Source: Trichodelitschia bisporula
Taxonomy: Eukaryota; Ascomycota; Dothideomycetes; Phaeotrichales; Phaeotrichaceae
Direction of reading: 5' to 3'
Assembly: GCA_010356995.1 (NCBI GenBank)
Contig: ML996698.1
Coordinates: forward strand, 802,064 to 866,063
DNA length: 64,000 bases
Shown: positions 4,729-56,717 of the stretch, one piece after another
Numbering within the stretch: the first letter of the stretch is position 1
Layout of the letters: each line of letters starts with the position of its first letter
Notes under the pieces: generated by a model
Database searches by the model: none
The model's input: the letters and a program-made list of their open reading frames with translations, nothing else
What the model was told of the DNA's origin: nothing
Made by a program: the position numbers and the translations under genes

Positions 4729-5343
4729 CTACTTCTTCGCAGGCACCAAATCCTCCACAAACCCCTTCCACAACCTGCCCAATTCCTCCCTCACCGTCTC
4801 CCCCCCCTCCGCATTCACGGAAGTCACCTCCTTAACCTTCTGCACCACCCCCTCAAACGCCCCCCCATCACCAACATCCGCCATCCTTCTCGGCTGCTCA
4901 AAATGCGTCCCATCCGCACTCACCGTATGCACCTCCCCCCTCATCAACTGCCCCTCGCGCTCAAACACCGGCCCATCTATCCTCGCATAACTCGTCCCGC
5001 TCGAAAAATCCACAATCGGGACCCGCAAAGGCTGCGTCCCCGCCTCGATCACCACGTCGGGGAAGTACATGAAGTCGATGGTACTAGTGTCGCCGGGGGC
5101 TTTGGCGCTGCGGGAGGTGTTGAAGGTGCGGGAAGAGGGTTTGGAGGATGATGCGGCGGTGGCGTCGAGGTCCATGATGCTGGCTTTTTTGGCGTCGCGC
5201 GGGTTGGGGTTGGAGCGTTTGGTGAGGAGGTCGGAGGGGAAGGTTGTTGGGCCGGTCATGGACAGCGCGCGGGTTTGGATTGCGGGACCCGTGTGGGAGG
5301 GAAGCGTGCGGGCGAGGGCGCGTATTGAGCGTTGGGCTGCCAT
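4729..5343 (-). CDS. conserved-looking hypothetical protein, probably mitochondrial, 204 aa
   Basis: This is a single-exon gene of unknown function. I chose the ATG at 5343 because the product then begins MAAQRSIRALARTLPS, an Arg/Ser/Ala-rich stretch with no acidic residues that looks like a mitochondrial presequence; the longer open frame upstream (to 5556) reads like untranslated leader. The body has low-complexity Ser/Ala segments, then a compact region (FMYFPDVVIEAGTQPLRVP, later SYARIDGPVFEREGQLMRG) and ends FVEDLVPAKK. The region upstream of 5343 on this strand is AT-richer and promoter-like. The call as a gene rests on length, codon character and the plausible N-terminus; the function is open. 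Confidence 0.6.
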   Translation of the reverse strand: MAAQRSIRALARTLPSHTGPAIQTRALSMTGPTTFPSDLLTKRSNPNPRDAKKASIMDLDATAASSSKPSSRTFNTSRSAKAPGDTSTIDFMYFPDVVIEAGTQPLRVPIVDFSSGTSYARIDGPVFEREGQLMRGEVHTVSADGTHFEQPRRMADVGDGGAFEGVVQKVKEVTSVNAEGGETVREELGRLWKGFVEDLVPAKK

Positions 5344-32862: not shown

Positions 32863-33525
32863 GGTGATGTGCATCCGTAGAGGGAGAGAAGGAGCACTCA
32901 TGGGTCGTGGTATTTGAGGTCTGCATCCATTCCTTCACCGCATCCCCATCCCCACAGCCTCAGCCCTCCCTTAAAAATTCCAAAACACAAATCCAGCCCA
33001 GCCCCATCGCAAGGATCACCCCGCCGCCGTTACGCCACCCCACATCCGCACACCGCTTCAACCACTCACACGCCATCTCTCCGAGCACCACATGCAACCC
33101 CTCCCCGCCATCGCACATGGCATGCGTCCATGCTCCCGTCCCGTCTCACGTCCCGAAGCGGAAAGCTAGCTCGCGCAATTGTAAGGTTAGTCGCGCGATC
33201 AGCGTATCAATTCGATATCACGACACCACAGCGCAATGCGCACCGCACAACAGTACCATAAACTCCAATTCCCAATTGCAGCTCAATCCGCACGCGGTCA
33301 CCGCTCCTCAATATCTACAACCCCTCGTGCACACCGTCCCGTCCGCAACGCCCATCCCAGCGCCACCGCACAAAAAGCACACCCCGCATCCCAGCAACTC
33401 CTGACCCGTGCGCCTGCCCCAGCATGGGAGCATAACAATCCCAGAAACCCAGAAAATCAAAAACCCTCGACAACAAATAACCCACTGCTCCCACCGTCCT
33501 CGCGCTCATCCATCTATTTCTCACT
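32863..33525. promoter_or_regulatory. divergent intergenic region between two mucin-like membrane protein genes
   Basis: 663 bp separate the two start codons of the divergent pair. The stretch is rich in CCA/CAC and has no gene that I can support, so it should hold both promoters. Confidence 0.4.
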
Positions 33526-34350
33526 ATGCCACGGGCCGCACCACAACGAGCCACGCTCTTCCTCCTCCTCAGCCTCGCCCTAGCGGCAGTCGCGCAGAAC
33601 AGCACGAGCACCACGCTCCCTTCAGGCCCAGTGCCATCGTCGAGTCCCGCCTCCACGCTCCCTTTCCCTGAGAGCAGTCTCGCCGCACCAAAACCAAGCA
33701 CAAGCCCACCTTCAACACTAAGCACCATCACACACACCTCAAAAACCTCATCCTCATCAACCCCAACCTCAACGCCCCCACCCCGCCCCCAGCGCCCAAA
33801 GCTATCCACCGGCGCACTAGTAGGCGTCGTTCTCGGCGCAACAGCCGGCTTCATCCTGCTCGTGTTATTAGTGTATGCGCCTGTTGTCGCGGGGACAAGG
33901 AGGGCGGTTGCGGATGGAAGGATTACGCCGATGATTGGGAGGAGGAGGGGACGGTCTGTACGGTCGTCGGATGAGGAGGGGAGTTTGGCGGGGGAGGGCA
34001 GGGGGGAGGAGAAGGGAGTGGGGGTTGGGGTGAGGGAGGTTGAGGGGGATGAGAGGGAGAGGGGGACGGAGAGTGATAGTGTGAAGAGTGGGATTGAGGT
34101 TGGGAGACGGGATGAGGGGTGTGAAGGTGCGCGGGGTGTTGGTGTGGCGGTGACGGCGGCGGGGGATGAAGCGGCTGAGGTTATTGGTGTGGCGGTGACG
34201 ATGGATGAAGCGGAGACGAGAGCCGGGGAGGACGAAAACTCCGAAGATGATGATGAGGACGAAACGTCAATGGAGGAGCATGCCATGGAGGCAAGAGCGG
34301 GTGGCAAGGCAGTGCAGGTCGTAGTTAGGGGCGAGGAGAAAAGGCTGTGA
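33526..34350 (+). CDS. mucin-like single-pass membrane protein with acidic tail, 274 aa
   Basis: A single-exon gene for a surface protein of unknown function. The N-terminus is a signal peptide (MPRAAPQRATLFLLLSLALA, cleavage near AAVAQ). Residues of about 25-85 are Ser/Thr/Pro-rich and probably O-glycosylated. A membrane helix follows (LSTGALVGVVLGATAGFILL, VLLVYAPVV), then a long Glu/Asp/Gly-rich cytoplasmic tail (ENSEDDDEDETSMEEHAME). The layout resembles fungal wall-sensor-like proteins but no Cys-rich WSC domain is present. It is divergent from a probable paralog at 32862. Confidence 0.65.
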   Translation: MPRAAPQRATLFLLLSLALAAVAQNSTSTTLPSGPVPSSSPASTLPFPESSLAAPKPSTSPPSTLSTITHTSKTSSSSTPTSTPPPRPQRPKLSTGALVGVVLGATAGFILLVLLVYAPVVAGTRRAVADGRITPMIGRRRGRSVRSSDEEGSLAGEGRGEEKGVGVGVREVEGDERERGTESDSVKSGIEVGRRDEGCEGARGVGVAVTAAGDEAAEVIGVAVTMDEAETRAGEDENSEDDDEDETSMEEHAMEARAGGKAVQVVVRGEEKRL

Positions 34351-38570: not shown

Positions 38571-40156
38571 CTACCCCCTAAACCCCTCCTCACTCCTCAT
38601 CTGCTCCTCCAGCCTCGCCTCCATTTCCTCCAACTCCTGCAACCGCGTCAACCGCGCCCGTTCCGCCCTGATCCGCTCCCGCTGCGCCGCCATGCTAAGT
38701 ACCTCCGTCGACGTGCTCGTTGCCGGACTCGTAGGGCTCGTCGCATCGCTCGCGTGCCGTGCGTGGCTCGGCCGCGGCAGGGGCGACCGAGCCGACGAAC
38801 GCGACACACCCCGCAGCGGCGGCTCAGGTGGCACCGATGGCTCCCTAGGCGGCGGCGGCGGTGGGCCCGGGGGCGCAATGACCAGGGGTGCGAGAGGCGG
38901 AGGGGGAGCCCGTGGTGACCATGCGGGTTGCTCCTCGCGCGCCCGCGTCTGCAAGGCATACTCGCGCGGGCTGAGCATGCGGCCGTCGAGCTCGTGGTTC
39001 ACGGGCGCAGCGTCGAGTTCTCGCGTCGAGAGGTGGCGCACCGTGGTGCTGGTGTTAGTTTTGAATTCGTAGTCCTGGTTTGAGTTTGTTGGGGAATATG
39101 GGGGGGTGCGGGCGCGGCGGCGGTGGAGGAAGAGGAAGACTAGGATTATCAGGAGGGCGAGGACGAGAAGGGCGCCGATTACGGCGCCGGCGATGGCGCC
39201 GGGGGGTACCGATTTTCGGGTGGAGGGGGAGAGGGCGCCGGGGGGGATAGGGTCGCCAGCAAGGGCCCAGTGCATGATGGCGCTGTCGGTGTGCTCCCAG
39301 CGGATTTGGACGGGGGCGGCGATGAAGATGGCCGAAGTGCCGGTTACGGCTGTTGTTAGGCCGGTTGCGGAATAGGTGGTTGAGTGTGGGGCGAAGGAGG
39401 TGCTGGCGAGGACTGCGTCGGATAGGTGGTCTGTTTCGGTGGATGCGTAGAAAATTGTGTTTTCGAGTAGACCGGTGGAGGTGGTGAAGAGGGAGTATTC
39501 GGCGGAGATGGTGAAGGGGGAAGTGCTACGCGAGACGCATTGCGAGGTGCCGAGGAGACCTTCGACGGCGAAGCCACTGGGGGGTTAGGGTCTAGATGGA
39601 GATGGGGGATGTGGGATATGGCCTACGTGTAGCAGCAGAAGCCGGCGAATTGGACTGCTGTTGAGGTTCCGCCATGGACGGTTGTGGACTGCGCGGTTTT
39701 TGCCAGTGTCTGCCCGCTTGGGCATATTCCTGGGGAGTAGAAGCTGATAGAGACGAAGCCAGGGGGGTAACATGACGATGTCCTTCCGACGACGAAGTTC
39801 CCCGCTCCAACGGAATTGATATCCCGATTCGGCGCCGCATATTGTGTCGCACAGGCCGCGGGCGGCGTGAACGAAGTCGTCAAGGGCGCGATGTTACCGA
39901 AGCCGGCCGTGGATGTTGGGACTGCAACCATGGTCGTCATATAATCTATGGTGCCTCCCGACGACAACTGGGTTGGAGTGACAGATGTTGTCCAGGTGCC
40001 ATACACTGTGATCACACTCAGATCCGGCGCGAGGTCGGGGAAAGCAGTGTACACGAGACTGCTCCAGGGCGAGGCGATATCACCGTTGGCCGAGCGAGCC
40101 GCGAGCTGGCGTTCCACTAACTCGGCGTTGTTGACGAACCTACGCAGCAGAGCCAT
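38571..40156 (-). CDS. surface protein family member A, single-pass membrane protein, 511 aa
   Basis: First and most diverged member of the array. Exons 40156-39627 and 39576-38571 join in phase to 512 codons. The ectodomain has FTPPAACATQY, GRTSSCYPPGFVSISFYSPG, ICPSGQTL, FCCYTGF and VQIRWEHTDSAIMHW. A membrane helix follows (GAIAGAVIGALLVLALLIIL), then a tail with the shared signature (RELDAAPVNHELDGRMLSP), a Pro-rich segment and a coiled-coil-like end (RERIRAERARLTRLQELEEM). Unlike D-G it has no exon 2/3 intron, and the start MALLRRFVNNAELVERQ is not an obvious signal peptide, so a 5' exon may be missing. This kind of protein is widespread in moulds but functionally unknown. Confidence 0.8.
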
Positions 40157-41689
40157 CGCGAGATGCGCAAAACGGCGGGTAGGAGATGCGGAGATCGAGG
40201 AGAACGAAGAATAGCGCGATCTCCGCTTTCTTGTAACTCCCTCTGCGCCGAGCTGCCCAGTGGCGGGCCTCGCTACGCTTAGGGCCTCACTGAGCGCCCT
40301 GCAGTCCGTCTACGGTGCTGCACTCCCGTCACTCCCCGTCCACGCACCTGACATGGCGCGGCGAGGCAGGGGATTGGAGCGCGGGCGCGAAACGGGCTCG
40401 GGCTTCGGTGCATACGTTCGCAAATCCATGCTCAGTCGGGCACGCGGCGCATGGGAGGCCGACCGGCGCAGTGCCTCGCTTCTCTCACGCCGCGTGGGCA
40501 CATCGTGATGTATTGCTGTGCTCCGCGCCGCAGACGTTTCGGACCCTGGCACTGGCGGTTCAAACGGTCGGAGCTTGGACGGGGATCGCAGGCATGGATT
40601 GAAGCGTCGTCGTGGGATTGGTCGCAGGCGGGCTGAATCATGGGTTCGGGACCGATCTAGGCTATTCTCGTATCTCGTTCTCCTTTGTCGCTTTGTCGTG
40701 GCTGCGGGGCGCATCGCGTTTTCAGCCCGGTGGCTTGGTGGCGCCGTCCTGCATTGCTAAACTTGCATGTCGGGGGAGAAGCCCACAGCCTTGAGGATAC
40801 GGGCGTCTCCCACGGCATCCGCGGACGACAACCAAAGAAAATTAGCAACCAGAAATCAGGAATACCATTGTCTTCAACAATGGCACAAGATATTCCCCGC
40901 GACTATTCGAGTCAGTTAGCAGGCATCCCGATCCTCATTGCCTCAGCCTCGTGGTTGAGCCTGAGGCCTGCATTCTGCATGCACTCGGTGCAAGCATTGG
41001 AGCAGCCCCTGTTGCTAGCAGCGTTTGATCCTTCCCCTGGGCGCTGTGCCCTACGTCGCGCACCGAGTAACTGGATATTTACACAAAGCAAAGAAACCCG
41101 CGAAGCGACTCGGCGAAGCGATGAATAAAAGGAATTGGCAGCGAGAACGAACCTGTCGTGATGCTCCCCCACGCCGCGGACAAAATGCCAAACTCGGATG
41201 CCATCACATTCTCGTCACAACATCTACCTTTTGCCCGGCTTGTTTTGTCACCCAATCACACTCTCGCTGAATGTCTTTACCGTATTTACAGATCGACGTA
41301 TCCGCCGTCGGCGCGGAGCGGACGGTCCCGTGTGGGGTCGCGGGGTGAGTGGTCCTATTCGGGTCCAGTAGCTTGGCGCAAAGACCTCTCCTCATCCAAG
41401 TGCACAGCCGAGGTCTTCGGGCCGGGCAGGGCGGACGTCTGGCGGCTGGTCGTTGTCCAAAGCACAGACGATAGCAGACGCTAATGGTTAAGCTATGAGC
41501 CATGTGGTCGAGGTTGTCGTCGGCTATGGTCTTGTCGTTAACCTTACTGATCCTACTAGACGCAAAGCACAACCAGCGTCAGTAGCAACGTGCGCTGCAC
41601 GCGTCATCGTACTCGCCTGGTATGCGTCGCGACGCCATCTCAACCGCACTGGCCATCTCCTGAATCTCCCTTTGCGGCACCGCATGATG
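40157..41689. other. intergenic, no gene recognised
   Basis: About 1.5 kb without a supportable gene. Near 41493-41560 a stretch (GTCGTCGGCTATGGTCTTGT) resembles 45980-46050 in the 3' flank of member D, so part of this is probably duplicated array spacer. Confidence 0.4.
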
Positions 41690-41885
41690 GGAGCAAGGGC
41701 TCGTTATGTGCGAAGGCCACTATAATACTGAAGATTGAAGTAGAAGACAAAGGGAGGAAGAGAGGAAGAGACTCTCGAGACTTAAATGCACGATGCCAAG
41801 TTTCCTCCTTTGCTCCTTCCTTCCATCATGCTCACATTGCATCATGTCCCGTCATTACACAAGAATGCTCCTTCCGTGTCTACAT
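41690..41885 (+). repeat. dispersed repeat family R1, copy 4
   Basis: The clearest copy: GGGAGCAAGGGCTCGTTATG, ACTGAAGATTGAAGTAGAAG, CTCTCGAGACTTAAATGCAC, GATGCCAAG, CTCCTTTGCTCCTTCCTTCC and AAGAATGCTCCTTCC. It lies 3' of member B. Confidence 0.75.
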
Positions 41886-42705
41886 CACCGCAGGCGCTTT
41901 GCGAGGCGGCAGGTACGAGGTCTGCCCATCTCCTAGCCGGCAGGCAGCAGCAGAGGCAGTACTGCTGTCAGTGTCATTCAAGACCTGAACGATAATGAGA
42001 AGGCATAGATGGAAGTAATTGATGCCTCTAAATAATGGTGAGCATTGTCAAATGAAGTCCGAGACTAGTTCTAGGTAGGACAATGACGTCCCGATGGTCA
42101 AAGCGCCGCCCGAAAAATAATGAGCCCCGCCCTGCCTCAGTTTGCCTTATAGAAAACAGTGTCGTTAGCAACACCAAGCTAATATTTCGTCGAGATGCCT
42201 CATATAGCTTGCAATCTACTGGGATCGCGTCAACTAGCTATCCCTTTTGCCGCTTGGTCCTGCCCGTTCTCCGCAGCCTAAGATACTCTTACCTAGAAGA
42301 GTGGTGTTCACCATTTCTCCAGGAGGCCCTTCGTCCCTTCGTGACGATACAGTACAGTGAAGACAACCCCCTCCACCCGCATCACAATCGGTTGAGACAT
42401 TGACAGGCGCGGGCGGGTCGCGCAGTCTGCTCCTGTCCACTGCCAAAGTGTGGATACCAAGGAACCGGTGTTGGCATTGAGATTGCTCTCCGGAGCCTTC
42501 GTCCCCGCTCTTCCACCCCCACACGTCGAGACCCACCACTTTGCCGTCACGACCTCGACATCAACGGCCGTGGTCGTCTTTGTATCTCCGTCATTTCAGT
42601 AAGCGCAGCCGTCGCGGAGCGCTCCAGATGCACAATGCTGCCCCAAAGACAACTTCGACAAGGCGACAATCACAAAACAACCAGCTCCCATTCTCCTTAA
42701 CAAGA

Positions 42706-43788
42706 TCAGTAAGATTGCCGACGGGGGCGTCTTTGAGTATCGCTATTTGTAGTTTCTCCCAACAGCATCGTTCTGCCATCCACCGGCGTCGCCTCAAGAT
42801 CGTGGTTCACCTCCACTCCCGCGGACTGCGCGTCGAGCTCGTATTTTACAGCTGCGGACTCGGGGTGTACTTTCTGGATCTTGTTGAGCGTGGTTTTGAG
42901 CGTGGTGCTCTTTGGGGGTATCGCAGTGGAGAGTCATGCCATGACGGCTGTGTCTGTTGTTTCCTAGCGGATGGATACGGGGGACATCACGAAGATCGCA
43001 GGAACTGTATCGCTCACTCACCGTTACATGCGAGGGCGAGGGTATGCCCCTTCGGAGGTGTAAGTCTGCTTCAATTCTGTATAGGGGTTTTGTTGGTACG
43101 GGACCGCGCGTGGTTGCGGGCCAGTTGAGACAGGAGATGCAGAGGGAGCCGCTGTTGGAGGGATCTATAGGGCCGGAGTCGACGGCATAGCCGCTTGTTG
43201 GAGCGTCAAAGTTGTGCTACGGGTGGGGGGAAGGGGGAGGGGCATGGAGGGGACGTACGTGGGACAGCAGAAAGCTTGAGTCTGGCTGGCGGCGCGGTTC
43301 AATGTTGATAGAATGCTTGTGTCGCCGATCGCGTACCCGCTGGGGCATATGCCGGGCGAGTAATGCATGGCACGGAGATAGTCAGACGGATAGCAGGCGG
43401 CGGTGCTGCCGAAGTAGAAGCAGAACGTGGTTGGCTGATTGAGCGTACGGAGGATAAAGTACTGCGAGTACGAGGCGGGGGGTGTGAACGTAGTTGTTAG
43501 AGGCAGGATGATTCTTTCCAAGGTTAAGGTTTTGGTTGTGGTCGTCTACATGATGTCGGCGTCCGCCGACATGATTATAACACCAACTATTGTGGCAGAT
43601 TGGAGACTCGAGTCCCACAAGGCTTGGTAGATGTCGGTATTGGATATTGTGTTTGTGAACTGGACGAAATTGCCTGCCTTTCCCATTCCCATTTCACCTC
43701 TGGACCTTAAATCCGGTGAGGCGGCACCAGAGGCTCGAACCATCGAGACGACCGCAAGCACCCTAAGAGCCTGAGCTAGTACAATCAT
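42706..43788 (-). pseudogene. surface protein family member B, pseudogene
   Basis: The start MIVLAQALRVLAVVSMVRAS is a family signal peptide. The ectodomain is recognisable (TTTFTPPASYSQYF, AACYPSDYLRAMHYSPGICP, SGYAIGD, QAFCCPT). It is interrupted by an in-frame TAG before the FTPP block, by TAG at the conserved Trp of the IRW motif and by TGA at the Trp of the VMAW motif. The membrane helix has been lost: the frame passes from the VMA segment directly to the cytoplasmic tail (AVKYELDAQSAGVEVNHDLE, DGRTMLLGE). The FTPP block has Ser where others have Cys. This is the most decayed member. Confidence 0.85.
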
Positions 43789-44222
43789 GACTGATAACGA
43801 GTGTAAAAACGGGCGAATGTCACAAAAGGATCGCTTATTAGGCTAAGCCGGCCGTCGTCGGTGCTTTATATTTCTCAGCACAGCGGCGGGGTAAAAGAAT
43901 GAATGCGCCGGAGGCTGAGGAGTGGCAAAAGGCTTGGCTGGGTGGGATGCAGTCGGGTTGCAGATGAGTCCCATGCCAAGTGAGCCATTCTCGCCCAGCC
44001 TCATGGTGCGCTTCGCAGGTTTTTGGACGGTTTGCGGTGTCACAATTGACAACGATTTTGTTTTGGGATGGCGTGGATGGATACTTCGCTATGCGGTATA
44101 ATAGTTTTGGGAACCGGTCGCAACAGCTAAGCAGAGGGAAAAGTAAATGGGACAAGGCTGGCCGGAGTAGGAAACGACTTAGCACGGAAGGGCCAGGCGG
44201 GAAGTGAAAAAGAGAAGGAAAG
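43789..44222. repeat. short upstream spacer of member B, shared with other array members
   Basis: GCGCCGGAGGCTGAGGAGTG, GGTGGGATGCAGTCGG, GTGCGCTTCGCAGG and GGACGGTTTGCGGTGTCA recur in the upstream regions of C (near 45660) and D (near 48700), with parts also in E, F and G. This shows that promoters were duplicated along with the genes. Compared with D, E and G, about 1 kb of spacer is missing. Confidence 0.65.
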
Positions 44223-45452
44223 TTAGGTAGACGTTCGCACCGCTCCCTTTCTCTCTTGATGGTTGCCGTGTAAAGTCAACACTGACGCACACAACATCGG
44301 CACTTGCAGTAGCGACGATACGCAAGCATACTCGTACCTCGCTTCTTGATCTTCTAGTTAAATTAGCCAAGCTGCCTTTAAAAGGGGGTAGAAACCTGCC
44401 TGAGGGTGTTAAATGCTTGCGCCGCCGTACGCGGAATGTTATCATGCCCGCGATGCTGAGTCCTAGCACCGCGAGTCCGCCAAGTATGCCGCCGGCGAGA
44501 GCCCCGGCGTTGGGGCCTGGTTTGCTGGCGTAGCCTGTGCTGTTCGAAGTCTTAAGCCAGGACAGGACCGCCTTATCTGTCGTTTGCTAGCGGATGGATA
44601 TAGGGGTTACGACGAACTGAAGTGAGCCGACGCCGAAGAATTGTGCGCTTGAGGACGTGTACGGCAGGCCGGTTTGGGAGGGGAAGTAATAGGAGTTAGT
44701 GTATGCGCTGATGGTCCACGAGACGGTGATTGGTGAATTTGGCCCGGGCAAGTTGCTGAAGGAGAAGCAGGCGCAGGAGCGGTGGGTTTCTGTGTCGGCC
44801 CCGATGATGTAGCCACTGTGGGGTTAGACTTGGTTACGACAGGGAGATGGTATGGGGGGATGTACGTAGGACAACAACGGGCTGCAGTTTCGCGTGGTTG
44901 GGTTGTGCTGGTGATGAGCGTAGGAAGTGGCCGTCCCCCCTGGAACCAGTCGCTGGTCGTGGATGTTGGCACGGTCGTATCGGCGACCGTTTACCCGCGC
45001 GGACAGATACCGGGCGAGTAGTACGTGACGGAGAGGTAGTCCGGCGGGTAGCTGGACGAAGTTGTACCTACGAAGACACGGTTTGCAAGTTCACGGAACT
45101 GGTACTGCGTCGTACACGCTGGGGGTGGGTAAAAAATGGCGTTTAGCGGCGCGATGGAGCTTAAAAACCCCACGGTTGAGGTTGGTAATGCACCCCAAGA
45201 ATCCTCAGTCTGTCTCCATGTGCCGACCGCTGTGACAGAGGTGGCCTTGGGATCGAGTTCGGCGTAGTTGCTGTTGTACATTATGGTTGTGAAAGGCATT
45301 CCCTCGCTGATTTGGGTGCCGGGATTGTTTACGGGGACAAAGGATACTTCGGCGAAAGTGGCGGTGTCGCGTCTTTCGAGCCCGACGGCTCCAGAGGATC
45401 GAATCATCACGATAATCGCCAGCGCCCCAAGAATCTGAGCTAGAGCGGCCAT
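44223..45452 (-). pseudogene. surface protein family member C, all splice phases kept but two premature stops
   Basis: Exons 45452-44866, 44815-44400 and 44353-44223 keep exact phases (378 codons). The signal peptide (MAALAQILGALAIIVMIRSS), ectodomain (YPPPACTTQYQF, YPPDYLSVTYYSPGICPRG, RCCPTGYIIG), helix (GALAGGILGGLAVLGLSIAG) and a diverged tail (EARYEYACV) are all present. A TAA sits at the conserved Tyr after GICPRG and a TAG at the conserved Trp of the IRW motif. The Cys of the usual SSCYPPGY is Ser. The exon 2/3 intron has a GCAGGT donor. Confidence 0.85.
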
Positions 45453-46278
45453 GACAGAAACAGTAGCGAATGTGAAAACGAGGGAGTAGCGCAAAAGGAT
45501 CGCCCATCATGCTTATGCGAATTGTGCAAGTACCGAAGCCACGAACCAAATTGCTAAGCTCCCGGGAGCTATGATGTCTCCCGGTGTCCGGATTTGAGAA
45601 ACTCGGGAACGCATGAAGATGCGGGGTGAGCTATTCTTGCCTAGCTACGGAGTATGGTGCGCTTTGCAGGGGTTTGGACGGTTGGCGGTGTCAAAAGTGA
45701 TAACGAATTTGGTTAGCTACTACTAGAACCACCTCCTAAGCTTACTGACTGGCGACATATAAACGAAGTGAGCTTCACGATGTGGGCAACTGTGTTGCGC
45801 ACTCGGGAAAATAATGGAGGCACTCACATCGTGAACCCCACGCCCGAGCCGCACTGCCCATCATCAATTCCCTTCTTCGTACGGAATGCCACCTGGGAAG
45901 CGCTCGCCTAGACACTAAGTCAACCTGCACATGCCATCGGAAGAGCCTCCGAGGGGTGAGGCCGGGTTCAGAGGCACGTTGTCGATGTCATCGTGGACCA
46001 TTGTCTTATCGTTACTCATTCTGCCGGAGGTGGGGGACACAAAGCTCCATCTCAGCACAGGCCAAAATACCAGGGCCATATCCTCCCGCGCTCAATGCCT
46101 GCGCTTTGGTACCTGCGCGATGAAACTGAATGATGATGGGAAGCCACAAATTGCAGTAATGAATGGTTCCGAAAAAGACGCAGGGAATTGTGACGTGAAG
46201 TCCGAGGCCGGGAGTGATGTGAGCATACGGCAGGAGCATGCTTCTCAGGCAGGAACACAGTTGTATTTACCCCTCGAA
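45453..46278. repeat. spacer between members C and D with duplicated segments
   Basis: The left part (45590-45720) carries the shared upstream motifs of the array (GAGCTATTCTTGCC, GTGCGCTTTGCAGG, TTTGGACGGTTGGCGGTGTC). The right part (about 46190-46262) matches 52218-52280 in the 3' flank of member F: GTGATGTGAGCATACGGCAG and GTGATGTGAATATGGGGCAG, both followed by a GAGCAT block. No gene is seen. Confidence 0.55.
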
Positions 46279-47726
46279 TCAGCCTATCCCGAAACCGGCC
46301 GACCCTTCCCCCTCCCTTGCCAGCGAAGCACGTTTGCGCTCATACGGCCCCTTAGGCGCATACCCCGAACCCAGCATCGGCCTCCCCTCCCGCTGCTCCG
46401 TCGCGAGCTCATGGATCTTCCCCACCCCCGCGGGCTGCGCCGCCAACTCGTGCCTCGTCTCCTCCGGCTGCGCGTCTAACGGCCATTGCCGGCCCGCCGT
46501 CGAGGAAGGCATTTCCTGGATCCCGGGGTAGGAGCCGCGGAACGGTTGCTTTGATTCCGCTTCCGGTTTTGGATCTTCTGGGCTGGATTAGCGAAGCTGT
46601 GCTTAGGGAGGGGGTGGGAAACTTGCCCGTGGGCACCGATTGTCTGCGCCGCTTGCGCCGCCGGAGGCAGAATATTAGAACGCCTGCGATGGCGAGGCCG
46701 AGGACTGCGAGTCCGCCGACGGCCCCGCCGACGATGGCGCCGATGTTGACGCCGGTACGGGGAGCTATGCTCGCGGGGCTCGTGCTGTTCGCTGAGCCCG
46801 CGGTGGTGGAAAGCCAGTCTAAGACGGCTTTGTCGGTTGCGGCCCAGCGGATGGACACGGGGGTTACGATGAATTGGACTGGGCCCTTGCCGGCCATTGT
46901 TGTGTATATGTCCGAATGTGGCACGAAATTCGTAAGCTTCCCGGAGACAGGGGGGGTGAGATAGTGGCGGTAGAGGGCGGTGATGGTCCATATGCTTGTT
47001 GGTGATGTGGAGCCGGATAAGGTTGTGGGAAGAGAGTTGCTCATGGAATAGCATGCGGAGGAGCCGGGGTTTATGTCGTAGCCGCTGTGGGGTTAGGTTA
47101 GGTTGAGAGGGTGGATGGGATGGGACCTACGTGGGACAGCAATAGGCGTGGGTTTGGCTGGAAGCGGCCAGGACACCAGAGTCGGCAATGGTATATCCCT
47201 GCGGGCATATGCCGGGCGAGTAGTACGACATGGAGATATAGCCCGGCGGATAACACGCTTTCGTACTACCGACCCAGACAGACGGCGGATCCCGTGTAAG
47301 TGAGCGGACGACGTAGTTCAGCGAGCATGAGGCAGGGGGCGTGAACACGCTTGTCAGCGGCGCGTAGGTGCTTGTCCAGCCCACAGTTGTCACCACGTAC
47401 ATCCCGACAGCATTAGCAACGTTTTCCCACCCCCAGGTGAAGACCAGCGTGACGGAAGCGAGGGCGGGGTCGAATTCGGCGACACTGATTTGGGGATTGT
47501 AGACTGTGGTTGTGGTGGGTACGCCTAGGTCGGGGCCCTTGGGGACGACGGGGAGGCCGCTGTAGGTGCTGGTGGTGGATGCGGGGGTTGAGGCCTTTGG
47601 GACGACGGGTAGGCCGCTGTCGGTGGTGGTGGCGGCGGCCTGGCGGTCCTCAAGCCTGGCGACTCCAGAGGCTCGCACCATCGCGGCGAGCGCGAGGACT
47701 CTAAGAGCCTGAGGTAGCACAATCAT
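46279..47726 (-). CDS. surface protein family member D, intact, 450 aa
   Basis: A single-pass surface protein of unknown function. Exons 47726-47131, 47084-46627 and 46577-46279 add to exactly 451 codons. The signal peptide is MIVLPQALRVLALAAMVRAS. A partly duplicated linker (two copies of SGLPVVPK) is unique to this copy. The ectodomain has VFTPPASCSLNY, CYPPGYISMSYYSPGICPQG, YCCPTGYDINPGSSACYS and VTPVSIRWAATDKAVLDWL. The helix is GAIVGGAVGGLAVLGLAIAG followed by an Arg-rich stop-transfer (RRRKRRR). The tail carries SYPGIQEM, PLDAQPEETRHELAAQPAG, HELATEQREGRPMLGSGY and a basic end. The exon 2/3 intron begins GCAAGT, a GC-AG intron. Confidence 0.9.
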
Positions 47727-48880
47727 GACGATCGAGCGCGTAAAACGGGGGAGCGGGTCGCAAGAGGAGCGCCTGTCAGGCGCCAGGCGGGCATCGGTCT
47801 TTTAACCATTTCCTAGTTACCGTACAGAGGCAGGCGGGATGGACTTCTTGGAGGGTTGATCTCTGCCATGTCTGCCTCAATGCAGTCTGGCGAATGCAGG
47901 CCAAGGGACTAGTTACTGTGTAGAAAGACGCCCGCAGATATGCGCAGCCAATCCAGAGCATGACAGGCACGGAAAAGTGCCTGGAACAGGGAATACGTCG
48001 TGTGAGCGTCGCGCTTGTCCAGATTCGTACATTGGTCAGTATCGCGCCTGAATTCACGGTTATTGCCTTGTGGAGATGTTGACGGCCCGACCCATGATCA
48101 GCGCTCCACTCCCAGCTCCCGATTCACGACGGTCCTCGAATCTTACGGTAGATGCTAGGTAATTGATGTTCAGCCGCGCACCGAATAGGCCCAACCTCCG
48201 AGCAGTCGTGATACTTCCACCCCAAAAAGTATGTCTTGCGGACAAGGCCAGGAACATAAGTTACTGGGGAACAAGTACGGTATGGTCATTTGAGAAGATC
48301 TGAGCCTCATGCGACACTCTTCTACGTCGGAACGCTCGCTTGTTTTCTGGATGCGAGGGAGGGAATCCTTCGGGCCGTTTTCGTGTAACGTGGCGTGCGT
48401 GGTGAGGCTGTGCATGCACAGGGCAGGGGCTGGCCTCGGCGCTGTTGCTTTTTGGCGGGATGCCGTAATGATGGCCGCCGACGTGCCCGCGGCGTGCTTA
48501 ACCTTATCGGATTTTCGAACGCGACCCGCGACGAGAGTCGGGTTAGAATGTCATGGCCGAGAAAATATGTTATGGGTAGTTTGGGGGAGAGACTGCTACA
48601 GTACCTCGTAGGTGGGTGTTTAAGGTGGCGGGGTGGCGGGGTACAGTAGCGTGGGTGGTTGGAAGTAAAAATTCCAGCCGGGGGCTGGAAGAATGATGTG
48701 CCGGAGGCTGAAGAGTGCCACATGGTTGATTGGGTGGGAACGAGGTCGCACAAGAGCCTTACCCGTATGCCGCATGAGCTATTCTTGCCTTGTGGGCCGC
48801 TTTGCAGCCTTTGAGTCGGTTTGCGATGTCAAAATTGAGAGGAAAGAAAAAGAGAACAAGGCTGGAACGAGTCTATGATC
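47727..48880. repeat. long upstream spacer of member D (array duplication unit)
   Basis: Segments match the regions upstream of E (50814-51900) and G (56718-57770) in order: GCAAGAGGA next to the start, AATGCAG, GAAAAGTGCCT, GTCCAGATTCG, GACGGCCCGACC, GCATGCACAGGGC, ATGCCGGAGGCTGA-like and GCAGCCTTTGAGTCGGTTTGCG. No gene is supported in it. Confidence 0.65.
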
Positions 48881-49380
48881 AGCAGTCCTATTCCCCCGTA
48901 TTTGCTCCCCTTACTGTTCCTCCATCCCCGCCGACTGCTGCATTCAAAGCTGCTGCGTTGATGGGCTGCTGTGCAAGTCCACAGCTTTCAGATAGCAGTT
49001 GAAAAAGTCCAGTAAACAAGCCAACGCACTCCTCATGTCGGGCTGCCGCGCCGATGGTGCAGTAATGCAAATCCCAGCACTGCCTCCTCCATCAGTGAAC
49101 ACAGAGTTAACCTCGTCTGGATTTGGCAGCTTGCATCCCACATGTTGGCGCCCGCGACCTCGTTCACCCGCCAAAACAAGGCCTTGGTTGTCCACGAAGC
49201 TTGGACTTGAAGGCCGGGCGCTGGGCACCGTGTGCTGCGTTGAAGAGTGCTGAGACGCGCAGCCAGGTCGGCAGACTGGCTCACGCAGCGACGTCCTCAG
49301 CCCTTCAGCAAGGGGAATGCTACAGCCGCGTCGGCGACGATCGCATCGCCGCATCTTCCGCCATGGTGGATGATGCAAGC

Positions 49381-50813
49381 CTAGTGCAATCGAAACGAAG
49401 ATTCCATCATTTCGGCGAGTAACCGGGCCTCCCCCACCGACCCTTCCAGCCGCTCCCCCTCCGACCCCTCCAACTTCCCCCCCTCAGACCCCTCGCTCTT
49501 AAGCGAAGCATGTGAGCGCGCATACCGCCCCTCATCCGCAGACCCAGGCGACAGCATCGGACTTCTCTCAAGCGGCGAACCCGTGAGCTCGTGGCTCACC
49601 CCCGCGTGCTGAGCATCCAGCTCGTATCGCGGAGCCTCATGCGCGGAGGACATTTCCTGGATCCCGGGGTAGGGGCCTGGGAACGGTTTCTTGAAATCCT
49701 GATCTTCCTGGTCTTCCAGATCTTCCTTATCTTCTGGTCTGAATTAGCCAAGCTGTCCTTGAGGAGAGGGAGGAAAAGAAAACGTACCTAAGGATACCGG
49801 CCGCTTGCGCCGCAGAAGCCAGAATTTCATTACGCCTGCGATGATGAGGCCTAGAGTCGTGAGGCCGCCGATAATGCCACCGGCGACGGCCCCGGGATTG
49901 TGGCTGGGTTTGTGAACCGGCACGTTGATGACGCTTGTGCCATTCGAGCTGCTATTCGCATCTGCAAGCCAGTCCATGACGAATTGATCTGTCGATTGCC
50001 ACTGGATAGGCACAGGGGTCACGATGTGTTGCAACGCGCACGTGCCGCTTAATGTCGTATGTGTTTCCGAGTACCTTGGGCCGCTGCTCGGCTGGGGAGA
50101 AGCATAGACGTAAGAAGTTGCGGTAATGGTCCATGATTTTGATGTTGAGGAGGCAGCAGAGGAGATGCAGAGGGAGGAGCCGCGGGTCGCAGGGTCAGAT
50201 CGGATGTCGTAGCCACTGTGAAGTTAGGCGCGGTTATGATGGATGGGTGGAATTGGGGGACGTACGTGGGACAGCAATAGGCTTGGGTACCAGGGAGAAC
50301 GACATGGTTAGATGTCGCAGAGTTCATGTTGAAGGCCTTATACCCGCTCGGGCAGATGGCGGGCGAGTAGTACGCGGCGGAGAGGTAGCCTGGCGGGTAG
50401 CAGGACGAAGTCATGCCGACGAGTACACTGACCGTGGACGAGGTCTCGTACGACTGGGGAAGGATGTTTTGCGTCGCACATGCGGGAGGTGGGGTGAACT
50501 GGGTTGTAAGAGGCGTGACGTAGCTTGACCAGCCTAAGGTAGAGGTTGGGACCGTGACCCATTTACTGCTCTGTAGGTCCCAGGTGCCGATCAGAGTGAC
50601 AGAGGTGAGACTGGGGTCGAATTCGGCGTAACAAGTCTCAGGGTTGTATACCGTAGTTGTGAAGGGATCTCCCACGTTGTGTTCCGCGGTGGTGGTGGTG
50701 GCAGCGGGAGCGTCGCCATAGCCGACGAGGCGCTCCTCAAGCCTGGCGGCTCCAGACACTCGAATCATCACGATGACGGCGAGGAACTTGCTGACCTGAG
50801 CTAATGCGATCAT
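49381..50813 (-). CDS. surface protein family member E, intact, 442 aa
   Basis: Exons 50813-50266, 50215-49788 and 49733-49381 add to 443 codons. The start is MIALAQVSKFLAVIVMIRVS (an upstream in-frame ATG at 50864 reads as leader by comparison with the paralogs). The ectodomain has TQFTPPPACATQNI, GMTSSCYPPGYLSAAYYSPA, ICPSGYKAF, YCCPTGYDI and VTPVPIQWQSTDQFVMDWL. The helix is GAVAGGIIGGLTTLGLIIAG with a basic stop-transfer. The tail starts with an acidic run (EDKEDLEDQEDQD), then PYPGIQEM, PRYELDAQHAGVSHELTGSP, RSPMLSPGS and short EGSEG repeats. The exon 2/3 intron is GT-AG here (GTACGT). Confidence 0.9.
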
Positions 50814-51900
50814 GACGGATTGTGAAGGTGAAAACGACGGAAGCAGTTCGCAAGAGGATCGCAAGTCAGGCTGAGGCGGTCGTCGACCTTTTCTCTATTT
50901 CCCAGCACAAGAGAGGCCACGGATTCTTCTTTCTTGCAAGATCGACAACCCCGCTACTGGCCGTCTGCCATAGTGAGCACAGCCTGGTAAATGCAGCCCA
51001 AGCTACCAGATTAGAAACCTGCAGACGTGCATAGCCCAGCCCGAGTCCGACACAGTGCAAGACACGCAGGGAAAAGTGCCTCGAACAGGAAATGTCGATG
51101 GGAATTAGGCAGGATTTAGAGCATAAGCAGCCTGACGCAGGTCAGGTTCGCATATCGGGTTGCAGGGTGGCGGCCTGGCGCAATTGTCAGTGTGGCGCTT
51201 GAAGTCCAAGTTCTTGCTTGGTTGAGATAGCCTTCCCACCCCTGCTCGATAAGCGTACCCGACGGCCCGACCTACAGAGCCACCACACTGTTCAAGGCCG
51301 AACTCTTGTCTGAAGACCGGCTCGAAGCCATGCCGCGCGTTCAACATCCTCCTCGCTTCAGAGGCCTCGAGGTAAGCCTGTCAGAGCCACACCCGGCCGC
51401 GCACCAAACAGCCGTTACCGCACGACTACCTCAAGAGGTATGTCTGCTGTCACTCGAAAAATGCCCCACATATTGAAAATAACGCTCTGCGCCCCATTCG
51501 ATATCCTGGACCTGCACGGTCGCTTACTTTCCCTGTTGCAGGGAAGAATCACTACCGGATGCATCGTGCAGTAAGGCTGTGGATGCACGGGGCATGGATG
51601 GGCTTCGCCACCGCAGATGTCATTGGGCGAGATGAAGTGCGGTGCGAAAGCCGCTGCCGCGCGCGCGGTGTCGCTCTTCGGCTTTTAAACGCGAGCCTCG
51701 ATGGAAATAGGGTTGCGGCGTCATGACCGAGAACTTATGGTGTGGGTGGTTTGTGGGAGGGAGTGCTGGATGAATGTTCGGGAGGAAGTGGAGATTCCGG
51801 TCGGGGACTGGAAAAAGAATATGCCGGAGGCTGAGGAGCGCCACAGCTAAGCCGAAGTGAAAGTTCAACAGGACACGGCTAGAACAGGCCTCTGATCAGC
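50814..51900. repeat. long upstream spacer of member E (array duplication unit)
   Basis: Matches the spacers upstream of D and G; shared blocks include CAAGAGGA, CAGAAACCTGCAGA-type, GAAAAGTGCCTCGAACAG, CGACGGCCCGACC, GATGCACGGGGCATGG and ATGCCGGAGGCTGAGGAG. No gene is supported. Confidence 0.65.
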
Positions 51901-51989
51901 AGTGATTTTCATAGGCTTCGAGGAACCACTGGCCATGAGCTGAGCCATCAAATCGATAGCGTATCGCCTATTCAGCATTGCAGTTAGTT

Positions 51990-52210
51990 GGTCTTCCATA
52001 CATGGAATGGGAGAAAGGGCTCATTACGTACGAAGGCAACTGTAAAACTGAAGATGAAGGTAAAGAGAAAGGGAGGAAGAGAGTCAGAGACTCTCGAGAC
52101 TTAAATACGCGATGCCAAGTGCCCTCCTTTGCTCTTTCCTTCAACCACGCGCTCATGACATCACGTCTCTCAGGATGCTCCTTCCTGGCATAGCAACGCT
52201 CCTTCCATCG
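51990..52210 (+). repeat. dispersed repeat family R1, copy 5
   Basis: Shows GGGAGAAAGGGCTCATTACG, AACTGAAGATGAAGG, GACTCTCGAGACTTAAATAC, GCGATGCCAAG and CCTCCTTTGCTCTTTCCTTC. It lies 3' of member F, as copy 4 lies 3' of member B. Confidence 0.75.
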
Positions 52211-52440
52211 CAACATCAGAAGTCCAGACCTGGGTGTGATGTGAATATGGGGCAGGAGCATTGCTACTCAGGGGGAGCACGGAAGGATACTTGGCAACAC
52301 ATGCTTGGTCTTGAGCGTCTCCGCCGCTCAGCTTCTCCTCTTCCCTCTCTTTCATTTATACTTTCACTCCGCACTCATTGCCATTGCACGTGCCGGAGAT
52401 TCGTTCCCATCAGTGTAACTGTACAGGTTGAGTCCCGACT

Positions 52441-53893
52441 TCATGTCGGAGCACCCCTGGGCCTCCTCTCCCCCCCCTCTGCCTCCTCCCCCTCAGGCCC
52501 TTCCCCCTCCAGCCGCTCTCGCTCCTCCCACTCCGGCCCTTCCCCCTCCGACCCCTCTCGCCCGCCCCCCTCCGGCCCCTCCCCCTCCGACCCCTCGCTG
52601 TGAAGCAAAGCATGCGAGCGCGCAGACGGCTCCGCATGCGCAGAGCTAGGCAACAGCATTATCCTACCCTCAAGCGGCGTAGCCGCGAGTTCGGGTCTCA
52701 CCCCATCGGACTGCGCGTCCAGCTCGTAGCTTACCTCCGCGTGCAGAGCATCCAGCTCGTATCGCGGGGCCGCAGGTACGGTGGCCATTTCCTGGATCCC
52801 GGGGTAGGCGCCTTCGAACGTCTTCTTCAATTCTTGATCTTCTAGTTTGCATTAGCCAAGCCACCCTTGAAAAGGGAGGAAACCTGCCTGAGGGTACCAG
52901 CCGCCTTCGCCGCCGTACGAGAAATATTATTATGCCGGTGATGAGCCCGAGTACCGTAAGTCCGCCGACTATGCCGCCGACCAGGGCACCGGTGTTGATA
53001 CCGGAGTGAGGGACCGGCGCGCGGGGAAAGCTCACGCTGCTGTTCGCGGAGCCTGTAGCCGTAGAAAGCCAGTCCATGACGGCTTGGTCGGTCGTTTTCC
53101 AGCGGATGGATACAGGGGTCGCGCAAAATAGTATCGGCTCCGTGCCAGTTATTGAGAAGTATGTGTCCGAGTACAGCGGGACGCTGCTTGGCATAGGGGT
53201 ATAATAGTAATGAGAGACTACTGAGTAACTCCATGAGATTTTTGATGAAGTAGGGCCGGGCGTGGGTTCGGGATAGTTGAAAGAGGAGTATCAGGCGGAG
53301 GTACTGCTAAGGTGGGTGTCGGGTAGGAGGGTATAGCCACTATAGGGTTAGGGGCGCTGTTGCGACGGGTGTATGGGATGGATAGGGACCTACCTTGGAC
53401 AGCAAAAGGCTCGGGTTTCGGAAGAAGCGCCGTTGAACACTGGCAGCACGCTCGATTCGCGAATCCCATACCCGTTCGGGCAGATGCCGGGTGAGTAGTA
53501 TGCGACGGAGAGATAGCCCGGTGGGCAGCAGGACGAAGTGGTGCCGACGAGGAGGACGGATATGGGCTGGTTCTTCCCGTTGATGAGGTACTCTGTCGCA
53601 CATCGTGAGGGGGGGATGAAATGTGTTGTTATCGGCGCGACCGTGCTTGAGAATCCTAGAGTAGTGGTCGGAGATGGTTCTAAGTGATCCCCTGCTATGC
53701 CCCAGATGCCGGTCACAGTATGGTAGGTGAAGTTGGCATCGAATTCGGCGCGGCCGGGGTTGAGATTCAATATCGAGGATATATAGGGCTGCCCCGCGGT
53801 TGGGAGAGTGGTGGTGAAGGCGGCGGTGGTATCATCAGCTCGAACCTCTACGACGAACGCGAGAAATCCAAGGACTTGAGCCAGTACGACCAT
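52441..53893 (-). pseudogene. surface protein family member F, one premature stop, otherwise complete
   Basis: Exons 53893-53394, 53339-52888 and 52841-52441 keep exact phases (451 codons including stops). It is nearly a twin of G at the start (MVVLAQVLGFLAFVVEVRAD, EFDANFTYHTVTGIWGIAGD). The ectodomain has HFIPPSRCATEYL, SCCPPGYLSVAYYSPGICPN, AFCCPR and VSIRWKTTDQAVMDWL; the helix is GALVGGIVGGLTVLGLITGI. A TGA early in exon 2 replaces the Cys codon that G reads as ACYSS. The tail (AYPGIQEM, PRYELDALHAEVSYELDAQS, LEGRIMLLPSS) ends in a long Glu/Gly/Pro repeat. The exon 2/3 intron has a GCAGGT donor. Confidence 0.85.
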
Positions 53894-54132
53894 GGCGGAG
53901 AGCGGGTGTGAAAAACGGAGGAAGCAGTTCGCAAGAGGAGCGTCCATCAGGCTGAGGCGGGCGTCTGTCTTTTAGCTCGTTCCCAGCGCACGCGGCGGGG
54001 GCAAAAAAAGCCATACGCACGGGTAGTACACCGGAGCTTAATAAGTGCCACATGGCTCAATTGGGAACGATGCAGTCGGATGAAGCGGGTCTCATCCCTA
54101 CTATGTCACTCCATCTGCTCCTCTTACCGTCC

Positions 54133-54234
54133 AAGGACTGAGCGAAAAAGTGAAGACCACTCCCCCCGCTTCACTGGCCGTATGCCTCACCAAAAGCCGC
54201 CGGGGGGGAGTCTTCACTTTTTCGCTCAGCCCTT
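54133..54234. mobile_element. 102-bp palindromic MITE-like element
   Basis: The ends CTGAGCGAAAAAGTGAAGAC and GTCTTCACTTTTTCGCTCAG are perfect inverted repeats, extended outward by AAGG/CCTT and inward by C-rich/G-rich arms with a two-base indel. The ~35-bp core has no coding frame. It sits about 240 bp upstream of the start codon of member F. I saw no clear target-site duplication. Confidence 0.75.
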
Positions 54235-54344
54235 AGTTCCCTTGGTCCCTCTTCCGTCCATAGGCCCTTTCTGAATTCTCCAATTTCGCGCCCGCATGGT
54301 AGTGCGGCTCACCAACGTGCGCTACTCGGTACAGTCGCCACTCA

Positions 54345-54510
54345 GCCTCGCCGTTCTACACTAAGCCCCCGTAAAAGCGTGAAAGTAAGAGATTATGAAG
54401 AAGACTATGAAAAGAAAATAGAGAGGCGCAACGCCGGATAAAATATATGCGATGATCTATGTGTACTTTCCTTCCGTCATGCGCACCTTCCCGACTAACA
54501 TGCTCCGGTG
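54345..54510 (+). repeat. dispersed repeat family R1, copy 6 (degenerate)
   Basis: GAGATTATGAAGAAGAC, a purine-rich run, GATAAAATATATGCGATG, CTTTCCTTCCGTCATGCGCA and AACATGCTCCGG follow the R1 order. CAGCCTCGCCGTTCTAC before it also resembles the region before copy 2. Confidence 0.45.
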
Positions 54511-55414
54511 CAGCTCTTCCCTTGAAGGGCCGCGGAGAGCTCCTGGAGCCTCGTATTGCGAGTGCTGGCCCGACGTAATGCTAAATAGGTTGTGCTGGGC
54601 TGGATGTCTCCAAGCCGGTTGCTGGCAGTTGCCAGCTGTTGATGACTTGATGTTCCGGCTCGTCGCCGAACCCTCCGCGCGTGGCGCTGCCTTTCTCCAC
54701 GATACACCCGTAAAAGTGGAGCTTCCCGCAAAGCTTGGCCTAACCTACTGACGGGGGGCTGAGGTACTCGTACAAGTTGCATACTAGAACTCTGAATTGA
54801 TTGTGAGAAGCCGGAGAGATCTAAGCAATGTATCTACGTGTGAGTGTGGTACGTGCAACGGGCCATCGCACGCGCAATGTCACGTGACTCTCATGGCTGA
54901 GTGTCCTCGCAATGAGCAGCAACCCCACGATAGAGTATCGGCTGACAGACGTCCCCATGGCCCCTTCGTCACTCGAGTAATGAAAGCCAGCTCATCTCCG
55001 CTTATCGACCGCCGTCTGCGATGGGGTGACGCGATGCCAAGATCTCAGGGTCTACATCATAGATCTCCGAGCTCTCACTCTCTCTCCTTCATCATCAAGT
55101 CATTCATTCTCTCTCCATGCAGCCCTCGTGCCGTGACCGTAAGGCTGTTGATCCCACTAATGTCTAGTAGCACACCAACGCTGCAGCGACGCGAGCCTCC
55201 ACTCTGCCTCCCCAAACATGAACCGCTAAGTCACTCTCGTCCGGAGTTGATGGCCTTGCATACCACCTGCTAACGTCCGCGATTGAGTTTGCTCCGCAAC
55301 AGTGACGTAGGTGACCCACAAACCCGCATCCGTGATGGTCGCAGCGCCGCGCCTTCTGCGAAGATTACTGGCACACACCCAATATATTGTACAACCGAGA
55401 TACCAGCGGCACTC
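54511..55414. other. spacer between members F and G, no gene recognised
   Basis: About 0.9 kb between repeat R1 copy 6 and the 3' end of member G. Short frames only; no domain or clear array-spacer match was found. Confidence 0.4.
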
Positions 55415-56717
55415 TCAATTCGGCGCATCCCTCGACCTCTCACCCTCCACTTCCAGCGTATCCCTTGCCAGCGAAGAATACGACCGCGAATCCAGCACGT
55501 GGTGCGAATACCCAGTGGTCAGCATCGGCGTGCCCTCCTGCTGCTGAGCCGCAAGCTCGCGGGCGGGCTGCTGCGCGTCGAGCTCATATTCTATGAACGG
55601 CTGGTCGGAGTATGTTCCCTGGACCCCGTGGTTAGGGTTCGGGGTCGGGGACGCATGCTTAAGCTCTGGGTCTCCTACTCGGCATTAGACAAGACGGCTT
55701 CGACGTGGGGAGAAACGAACCAGATGGTACCGGGCGTCCGCGGTACCGGACGCAGAACACGATCGCGCCTGCGATGATGAGCCCAAGCAGCGCGAGTCCG
55801 CCGATTATGCTGCCGGCGAGGGCGCCGGGGCTAAGGCTGGCGGTGCGCGTGTGGTTCGACCTGCTATTCGCTGAGGCCGTGGCCGTTGTAAGCCATTTCA
55901 TGACGGCTTGGTCGGTCGTTTGCCAGCGTATGGATACAGGGGTCGCGAAAAATATCAACTCGTCCGTTCCAGTTATTGACGTGGGTGTGTCCGAGTACAG
56001 CGGGCCGTGGCTTGGGAAAGGGGTATGATATTCACGAGAGATTACTGTGAGCTGCCATGGGCTTTTTGATAAAGCGGACTCGGACGTGGGTTCGGGAAAG
56101 TTGAGAGAGGAGTAGCAGGCGAAGGAACTGCGAATTGCGGGGTCGGGTTGGAGGGTGTAGCCACTATAGGGTTAGGGGCGCTGTTACGACGGGTGTATGG
56201 GATGGATGGGGACGTACGTTGGACAGCAAAAGGCTTGGGTTTCGGTGGAAGGGCTATTAAGCACTGACAGCACGCTCAATTCGCGTATCGTGTACCCGTT
56301 CGGGCAGATGCCGGGCGAGTAGTATGAAACGGAGAGGTAGCCCGGTGGGTAGCAGGACGAAGTGCAGCCGACGAAGAGGATGGTTAAGACCTGGGCCCCC
56401 CCGTAAATGATGTACTCTGACGCACATCGTGAGGGGGGGGTGAATTTTGTTTCTAGCGGCGCGACGGTGATTGAGAATCCTAGGGTAGTGGTCGGAGATG
56501 GTTCTAAGTGATCCCCTGCTATGCCCCAGGTGCCGGCCACAGTATGGTAGGTGAAGTTGGCATCGAATTCGGCGTGGCCGGCGTTGAGATTCAATATCGA
56601 GGATGTATAGGACTGCCCCGCGGTTGGGAGAGTGGTGGTGGAGGCGGCGGTGGTATAATCAGCTCGAACCTCTACGACGAACGCGAGAAATCCAAGGACT
56701 TGAGCCAGTACGACCAT
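55415..56717 (-). CDS. surface protein family member G, intact, 400 aa
   Basis: Exons 56717-56218, 56163-55721 and 55674-55415 add to exactly 401 codons. The signal peptide is MVVLAQVLGFLAFVVEVRAD; an upstream in-frame ATG at 56771 reads as leader. The ectodomain has TKFTPPSRCASEYI, GCTSSCYPPGYLSVSYYSPG, ICPNGYTI, AFCCPTGYTLQPDPAI, ACYSSLNFPEPT and VSIRWQTTDQAVMKWL. The helix is GALAGSIIGGLALLGLIIAG. The tail is EYELDAQQPARELAAQQQEG, TPMLTTGYSHHVLD and a Ser-rich end; it lacks the GIQEM block of D-F. The exon 2/3 intron has a GTTCGT donor. It is the best intact reference copy for judging F. Confidence 0.9.

What the first reader, a model, noticed from the sequence alone, without database searches (positions are those of the whole stretch)
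38571..56717. Tandem array of seven single-pass surface proteins of one uncharacterised fungal family
Seven same-strand copies share signal peptide, FTPPxxC, CYPPGYxSxxYYSPGICPxGY, CCPTGY, an IRWxxTDxAVMxW segment, one helix and a tail with YELDAQ, HEL and PML motifs. Four are open (A, D, E, G), two carry stops only (C, F), one is decayed (B). Proteins with the YYSPGICPSGY core are common in moulds but have no known role. The copy number, the mixture of live and dying genes, and nearness to a HET gene suggest a birth-and-death family of surface sensors or self/non-self markers. The function is inference.
Basis: partly seen in the sequence, partly recalled or inferred. Interest (0 to 1): 0.85.

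Follow-up and report, generated by a model that had tools for sequence, protein, structure and literature searches.

The report
Fungal surface-protein array with swapped tails
A dung fungus carries one cluster of eight related single-pass membrane proteins, some intact and some dying, from a family that is widespread in moulds but apparently unstudied, and the outer parts of two of them look as if selection had made them differ, as expected of surface sensors.

Summary
Seven same-strand copies lie at 38571-56717 in Trichodelitschia bisporula (Dothideomycetes); an eighth, open copy (H) lies 32 kb past G on the other strand. Five genome searches found no other copy of the cysteine core. Copies share a 6-cysteine ectodomain, stalk, one helix and an xELx-rich tail. 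My spliced D and E equal GenBank proteins letter for letter. A, D, E, G, H are open; B and C are dead; F has one stop.

New here:
(1) Relatives (500 reported) have no Pfam ectodomain; 0 of 121 aligned relatives has a signal-peptide-like start. The array's N-terminal extension was found in no other species.
(2) Cysteines 84 and 108 occur together or not at all in 120 of 121 relatives, predicting an optional disulphide; the aligned copies lack it.
(3) F and G are recombinant: near-identical 5' parts, tails of different ancestry.
(4) F/G ectodomain dN/dS is about 2 (about 4 in its second half; one pair, segments chosen post hoc), against 3 of 54 changes in the intron between.

The HET neighbour is weak evidence (chance 0.08); RIP is not supported. 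Best reading: a birth-and-death array of receptor-like recognition or wall sensors; ligand, topology and signalling are inferred.

The parts
38571..40156 (-). Copy A, 2 exons (39627-40156, 38571-39576), 511 aa, open; no signal peptide seen; long proline-rich tail
42763..43788 (-). Copy B, dead: several stops, first core cysteine changed, helix lost, YELDAQ remnant
44223..45452 (-). Copy C, dead: TAA and TAG stops, second core cysteine changed, YELDAQ tail lost
46279..47726 (-). Copy D, 3 exons (47131-47726, 46627-47084, 46279-46577), 450 aa, intact; identical to EJ06DRAFT_79794
49381..50813 (-). Copy E, 3 exons (50266-50813, 49788-50215, 49381-49733), 442 aa, intact; identical to EJ06DRAFT_557755
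52441..53893 (-). Copy F, 3 exons (53394-53893, 52888-53339, 52441-52841), one TGA at the last core cysteine; annotated as a 182-aa product EJ06DRAFT_557757
55415..56717 (-). Copy G, 3 exons (56218-56717, 55721-56163, 55415-55677), 401 aa, open; EJ06DRAFT_522800 is the same gene with a longer intron 1
53638..53953 (-). 5' part of F (about 60 nt upstream plus N-terminal extension) that is 93-98% identical to G: homogenised tract

Best explanation
A recombining birth-and-death cluster of receptor-like surface proteins. Shown from sequence: shared exon structure, six-cysteine core, stalk, one hydrophobic helix followed by basic residues, a tail with xELx motifs; open, truncated and dead members; F and G with near-identical 5' parts but tails of different ancestry; F/G ectodomains differing mainly by amino-acid changes. 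Inferred: the ectodomain faces outwards with three disulphides; its second half contacts a variable ligand (another strain, another microbe, or wall material); the xELx motifs recruit a common cytosolic partner, so that recombination can join different ectodomains to different tails; selection favours a changing set of ectodomains while damaged copies decay.
For: Architecture and copy state. Family-wide conservation of the cysteines, one helix (119 of 121; the other 2 have two) and the tail motif (116 of 121; mean 2.13 against 0.21 shuffled). Recombination. F/G ectodomain dN/dS 2.07, Fisher p 0.004; second half 3.47, p 0.0014; codon likelihood 1.91, p 0.026 and 4.02, p 0.004; intron 1 between them differs at 3 of 54 sites.
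Against: The selection signal is one pair in one genome, with segments chosen after looking (six tested by likelihood): first half of the ectodomain 1.16, N-terminal part 1.73, tail 0.65 and whole gene 1.03 do not differ from 1. Much of the excess lies after the stop of F (p 0.012), while before it p is 0.09. Older pairs are below 1 (likelihood 0.46-0.64; counting 0.52-0.91). GenBank starts copy H after the predicted signal peptide. No ligand, partner, expression, structure or population evidence was available.
Confidence: 0.45

Rival explanations
1. Cell-wall integrity or mechanical sensors that work like Wsc1/Mid2 (glycosylated stalk in the wall, short tail calling a Rho-GEF), the array giving dosage or condition-specific copies without recognition of other organisms.
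For: Same general plan of stalk, one helix and short tail; Mid2 profile touches the stalk and helix of 13 of 121 relatives at E <= 0.01; UniRef labels some relatives, and copy G, Mid2 domain-containing.
Against: No Mid2 or WSC match in the copies at E <= 1 and no WSC among the families listed for 121 relatives; dosage alone does not predict the F/G excess of amino-acid changes.
Confidence: 0.25
2. Relaxed selection after tandem duplication: a redundant family drifting to decay, with no selection for difference.
For: Two of eight copies dead and one truncated; whole-gene F/G dN/dS is 1.03; F carries a stop.
Against: Relaxation gives ratios up to 1, not 2-4 in the ectodomain; all five open copies keep all six core cysteines; older pairs remain under constraint.
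Confidence: 0.2
3. RIP (repeat-induced point mutation) drove the decay and divergence of the duplicates.
For: Copy C has the highest RIP index (+0.24; reached by 0 of 208 control windows); B and C carry a TAG at the same tryptophan codon.
Against: With the protein held fixed, 14% of synonymous shuffles reach C's coding value; open copies G and H also exceed about 99% of control windows, and the spacers look like controls; the stop of F is TGA where G has TGC, a change that RIP does not make.
Confidence: 0.04

Closest known systems
Uncharacterised YYSPGICPSGY family of Pezizomycotina (hypothetical proteins; some labelled Mid2 domain-containing)
   Same: Cysteine core, VSIRW-like segment, S/T stalk, one helix, basic stop, xELx tail
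   Different: The array copies except A carry a signal-peptide-like start and a ~90-residue extension not found elsewhere; all aligned copies lack cysteines 84 and 108
Mid2/Wsc cell-wall stress sensors of yeast
   Same: Single helix, S/T-rich outer region, short cytoplasmic tail, signal peptide (description in PMC6469404, passages)
   Different: No Pfam Mid2 or WSC match in the copies; a cysteine core of another kind
Neurospora doc-1/doc-2/doc-3 kind-discrimination genes
   Same: Linked, highly divergent paralogs; DOC-1 and DOC-2 have one or two predicted helices (PMC4831770, passages)
   Different: No sequence comparison was made; that paper reports homologs only in Sordariales; their role rests on genetics that is lacking here
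HET-domain and NLR incompatibility genes
   Same: A HET gene lies 1.3 kb from copy A
   Different: Intracellular and unrelated; nearness is within chance

Membership tests
YYSPGICPSGY family (uncharacterised) | Core cysteines at reference positions 19, 58, 76, 101, 102, 122 | tested here: met
   All six present in A, D, E, G, H; one lost in C and in F and in B
YYSPGICPSGY family (uncharacterised) | One C-terminal helix and xELx tail motif | tested here: met
   119 of 121 relatives one helix, 116 of 121 the motif; D, E, G, H and A have one C-terminal helix; YELDAQ, HEL in D, E, F, G, H tails, RELDA and HEL in A
YYSPGICPSGY family (uncharacterised) | No signal-peptide-like start, core begins near residue 12 | tested here: not met
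   0 of 121 relatives have a hydrophobic start; D, E, G, H have one by the same rule, A does not. A simple hydropathy rule, not a signal-peptide predictor. I treat this as a variant feature, not as exclusion
Mid2 (PF04478) | Pfam match over the curated cut-off | tested here: not met
   No Mid2 match in copies at E <= 1. Relatives: 13 of 121 at E <= 0.01, best 6.3e-05; bits are shown only for P0022, 19.5 against cut-off 23.2
WSC sensors | WSC domain | tested here: not met
   None in copies nor among the 22 families listed for 121 relatives
Fungal allorecognition locus (doc-like) | Polymorphic haplotypes controlling strain-strain interaction | not testable with these tools
   One genome of the species held

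The most novel reading that the evidence does not exclude
The family is a widespread, undescribed class of extracellular receptors of filamentous fungi, with a small cysteine-bonded ectodomain and a common xELx docking tail; arrays such as this one generate new recognition specificities by shuffling ectodomains and tails, and in this lineage the receptor was rebuilt with a signal peptide and an extra outer domain.
Probability: 0.2. Interest if true: 0.85.

Novelty: new variant of a known kind. Interest (0 to 1): 0.52.

Why it matters
A 2022 review says that fungi, unlike animals and plants, do not seem to harbour extracellular pattern-recognition receptors with LRR motifs (PMC9119436, passage seen), so which surface proteins of moulds sense other organisms is open. 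Here is a family with hundreds of members, no Pfam ectodomain and a receptor-like plan, and one cluster where open and dying copies, recombinants and a candidate positively selected segment sit side by side. That makes the recognition idea directly testable by resequencing isolates and deleting one locus.

Tried and rejected
RIP as cause of decay: suggestive on raw dinucleotides, not after a synonymous shuffle. Assembly duplication: rejected. HET linkage: within chance, P 0.084. Pfam and PDB sequence searches gave sub-threshold or stalk/helix matches; one PDB hit (8z4h, E 0.31) falls in the ectodomain and was taken as chance. Further copies elsewhere in the genome: none; hits on other contigs cover stalk, helix and tail only. 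Literature in the held library: no paper with the motif strings or EJ06DRAFT; one taxonomic paper names the species (listing); searches listed nothing that I recognised as this family (listings only).

Full report
What is there. The window is C12:802064-866063 of a 25.65-Mb genome in 30 contigs. Proteins from its 970,100-base contig are named Trichodelitschia bisporula, a dothideomycete of the Phaeotrichales. Seven copies on the minus strand lie at 38571-56717; one DNA repeat family of 118 nt, around the YYSPGICP core, is found in all seven. Genome searches with copy G, copy A and three relatives from other fungi put every cysteine-core match at C12:841-892 kb: these seven and an eighth, H, on the other strand at C12:890661-892024, 32 kb past G. 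Between G and H lie an ABC transporter, a fungal-rhodopsin gene and an MFS gene; beyond H lie F-box-like genes.

Gene models. I spliced A and C-H by hand. Intron 1 (46-54 nt) splits the codon after CCP (CCY in A). Intron 2 follows the juxtamembrane basic stretch in all but A and uses a GC donor in C, D and F. For D (450 aa) and E (442 aa) the models equal GenBank proteins EJ06DRAFT_79794 and EJ06DRAFT_557755 letter for letter. H is annotated from its second methionine, 15 residues later, which would remove the signal-peptide-like start, and differs by one residue at intron 2. G is annotated with a longer intron 1 that removes about 50 residues, including a cysteine kept by the other open copies; F as a 182-aa product ending at its TGA. 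If F is made as annotated it would be a secreted, membrane-free fragment; this is untested.

State of the copies. A, D, E, G and H have open frames and all six core cysteines. B has several stops, the first core cysteine changed and the helix lost. C has two stops, the second core cysteine changed and the YELDAQ tail lost. F has one TGA, at the last core cysteine. So each of the three damaged copies, and none of the five open ones, has lost a core cysteine. The spacers are partly related too (for example AB and EF, 83% over 162 bases), so the duplicated units included flanking DNA.

The family. A search with the exon-1 profile found 23 proteins, two of them from this genome. A second, with a mixed profile, reported 500 at E <= 0.001 (possibly a cap) among 7,990 scored candidates, 120 listed, from Penicillium, Aspergillus, Talaromyces, Fusarium, Hypoxylon, Colletotrichum and others. 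By my hand count of locus-tag prefixes in that listing, 14 genomes hold two or three members. I aligned 121 of the 137 proteins then in hand; the 16 left out were two from this genome and short, long or redundant rows. Of the 121, 119 have exactly one C-terminal hydrophobic helix and two have two; none has a hydrophobic start, while D, E, G and H have one by the same simple hydropathy rule. The xELx tail motif is in 116 of 121, mean 2.13 against 0.21 in shuffled tails. No Pfam family covers the ectodomain above its cut-off, and the families that most of the 121 members touch at E <= 0.01 are helix or stalk models: Mid2 in 13, Podoplanin in 12. Against solved structures the profile has no match better than E 0.005, mostly in stalk and helix. 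The extension was sought with residues 1-260 of H among proteins of 0.55-1.75 times its length: of 8 hits at E <= 1, four are T. bisporula and four start at the core.

A predicted disulphide. Among the 121 relatives, cysteines at reference positions 84 and 108 are both present in 79, both absent in 41 and single in 1 (Fisher p about 1e-31, not corrected for relatedness). They most likely pair. The seven copies aligned there (A, C-H) lack both.

Recombination. F and G are 93-98% identical from about 60 nt upstream of the ATG to the end of the extension, 73-93% through the ectodomain, 52-74% from the helix on, and at background outside. Trees by segment agree: F and G are sisters in the N-terminal part (0.999) and ectodomain (0.995), but G and H in the tail (0.994). 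Ectodomains and tails have been recombined between copies.

Selection. For F/G the ectodomain shows 80.7 amino-acid changes in 376 sites and 15.3 silent ones in 137 (dN/dS 2.07, one-sided p 0.004); its second half 47.7/195 and 5.3/66 (3.47, p 0.0014). A codon likelihood model gives 1.91 (p 0.026) and 4.02 (p 0.004). Intron 1, between the halves, differs at 3 of 54 sites; ectodomain amino-acid sites against silent plus intron sites give p 1.5e-4. Against this: segments were chosen after looking, six by likelihood; the first half alone (1.16), N-terminal part (1.73), tail (0.65) and whole gene (1.03) do not differ from 1; up to the stop of F p is only 0.09, and the part after the stop carries much of the signal; older pairs are below 1 (0.46-0.64 in three pairs by likelihood; 0.52-0.91 in five by counting). 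It is one pair in one genome.

What was weaker than it looked. The HET gene next to A is real (E 1e-30), but the genome has 37 HET matches and the chance of one within 5 kb of a 51-kb cluster is 0.084. RIP looked possible for copy C on raw dinucleotides (0 of 208 control windows reach it), but 14% of synonymous shuffles of the same protein do.

How it most likely works. Shown: architecture, conservation, copy state, recombination, F/G excess. Inferred: outward ectodomain (basic residues after the helix, conserved cysteines), ligand contact by the second half of the ectodomain, a shared tail partner through xELx, and selection for a changing repertoire. The plan resembles Wsc/Mid2 sensors (PMC6469404, passages), and the genetics resembles the linked divergent doc paralogs of Neurospora (PMC4831770, passages), but it was not shown to belong to either. 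In the held library no paper holds the motif strings or the locus-tag prefix.

Noticed in passing
L006:6662-8025 (C12:890661-892024, outside the window): Eighth copy, open, on the opposite strand, GenBank EJ06DRAFT_531632; its tail is sister to that of G.
   Followed up: yes
EJ06DRAFT_522800 (copy G, 55415-56717): The GenBank intron 1 removes about 50 residues including a cysteine kept by the other open copies; probably a mis-spliced model.
   Followed up: partly
52441-52620 and 49420-49510: The tails of F and E end in glutamate/glycine-rich repeats from a 15-nt-period array.
   Followed up: no
33481-34347: On the + strand beside the HET gene: hydrophobic start, S/T-rich stretch, one helix and an acidic tail, without Pfam match.
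   Followed up: no
L046 (C16:390200-391900): Another single-pass reading frame with a different outer part but a tail with VHELP and SEMEV motifs; the xELx tail may be shared beyond this family.
   Followed up: partly
L028:766-1782 and 3407-5089: Two F-box-like genes beside copy H.
   Followed up: no
A3 reference position 45: 33 of 121 relatives have an extra cysteine there, only in proteins that also have 84 and 108.
   Followed up: no
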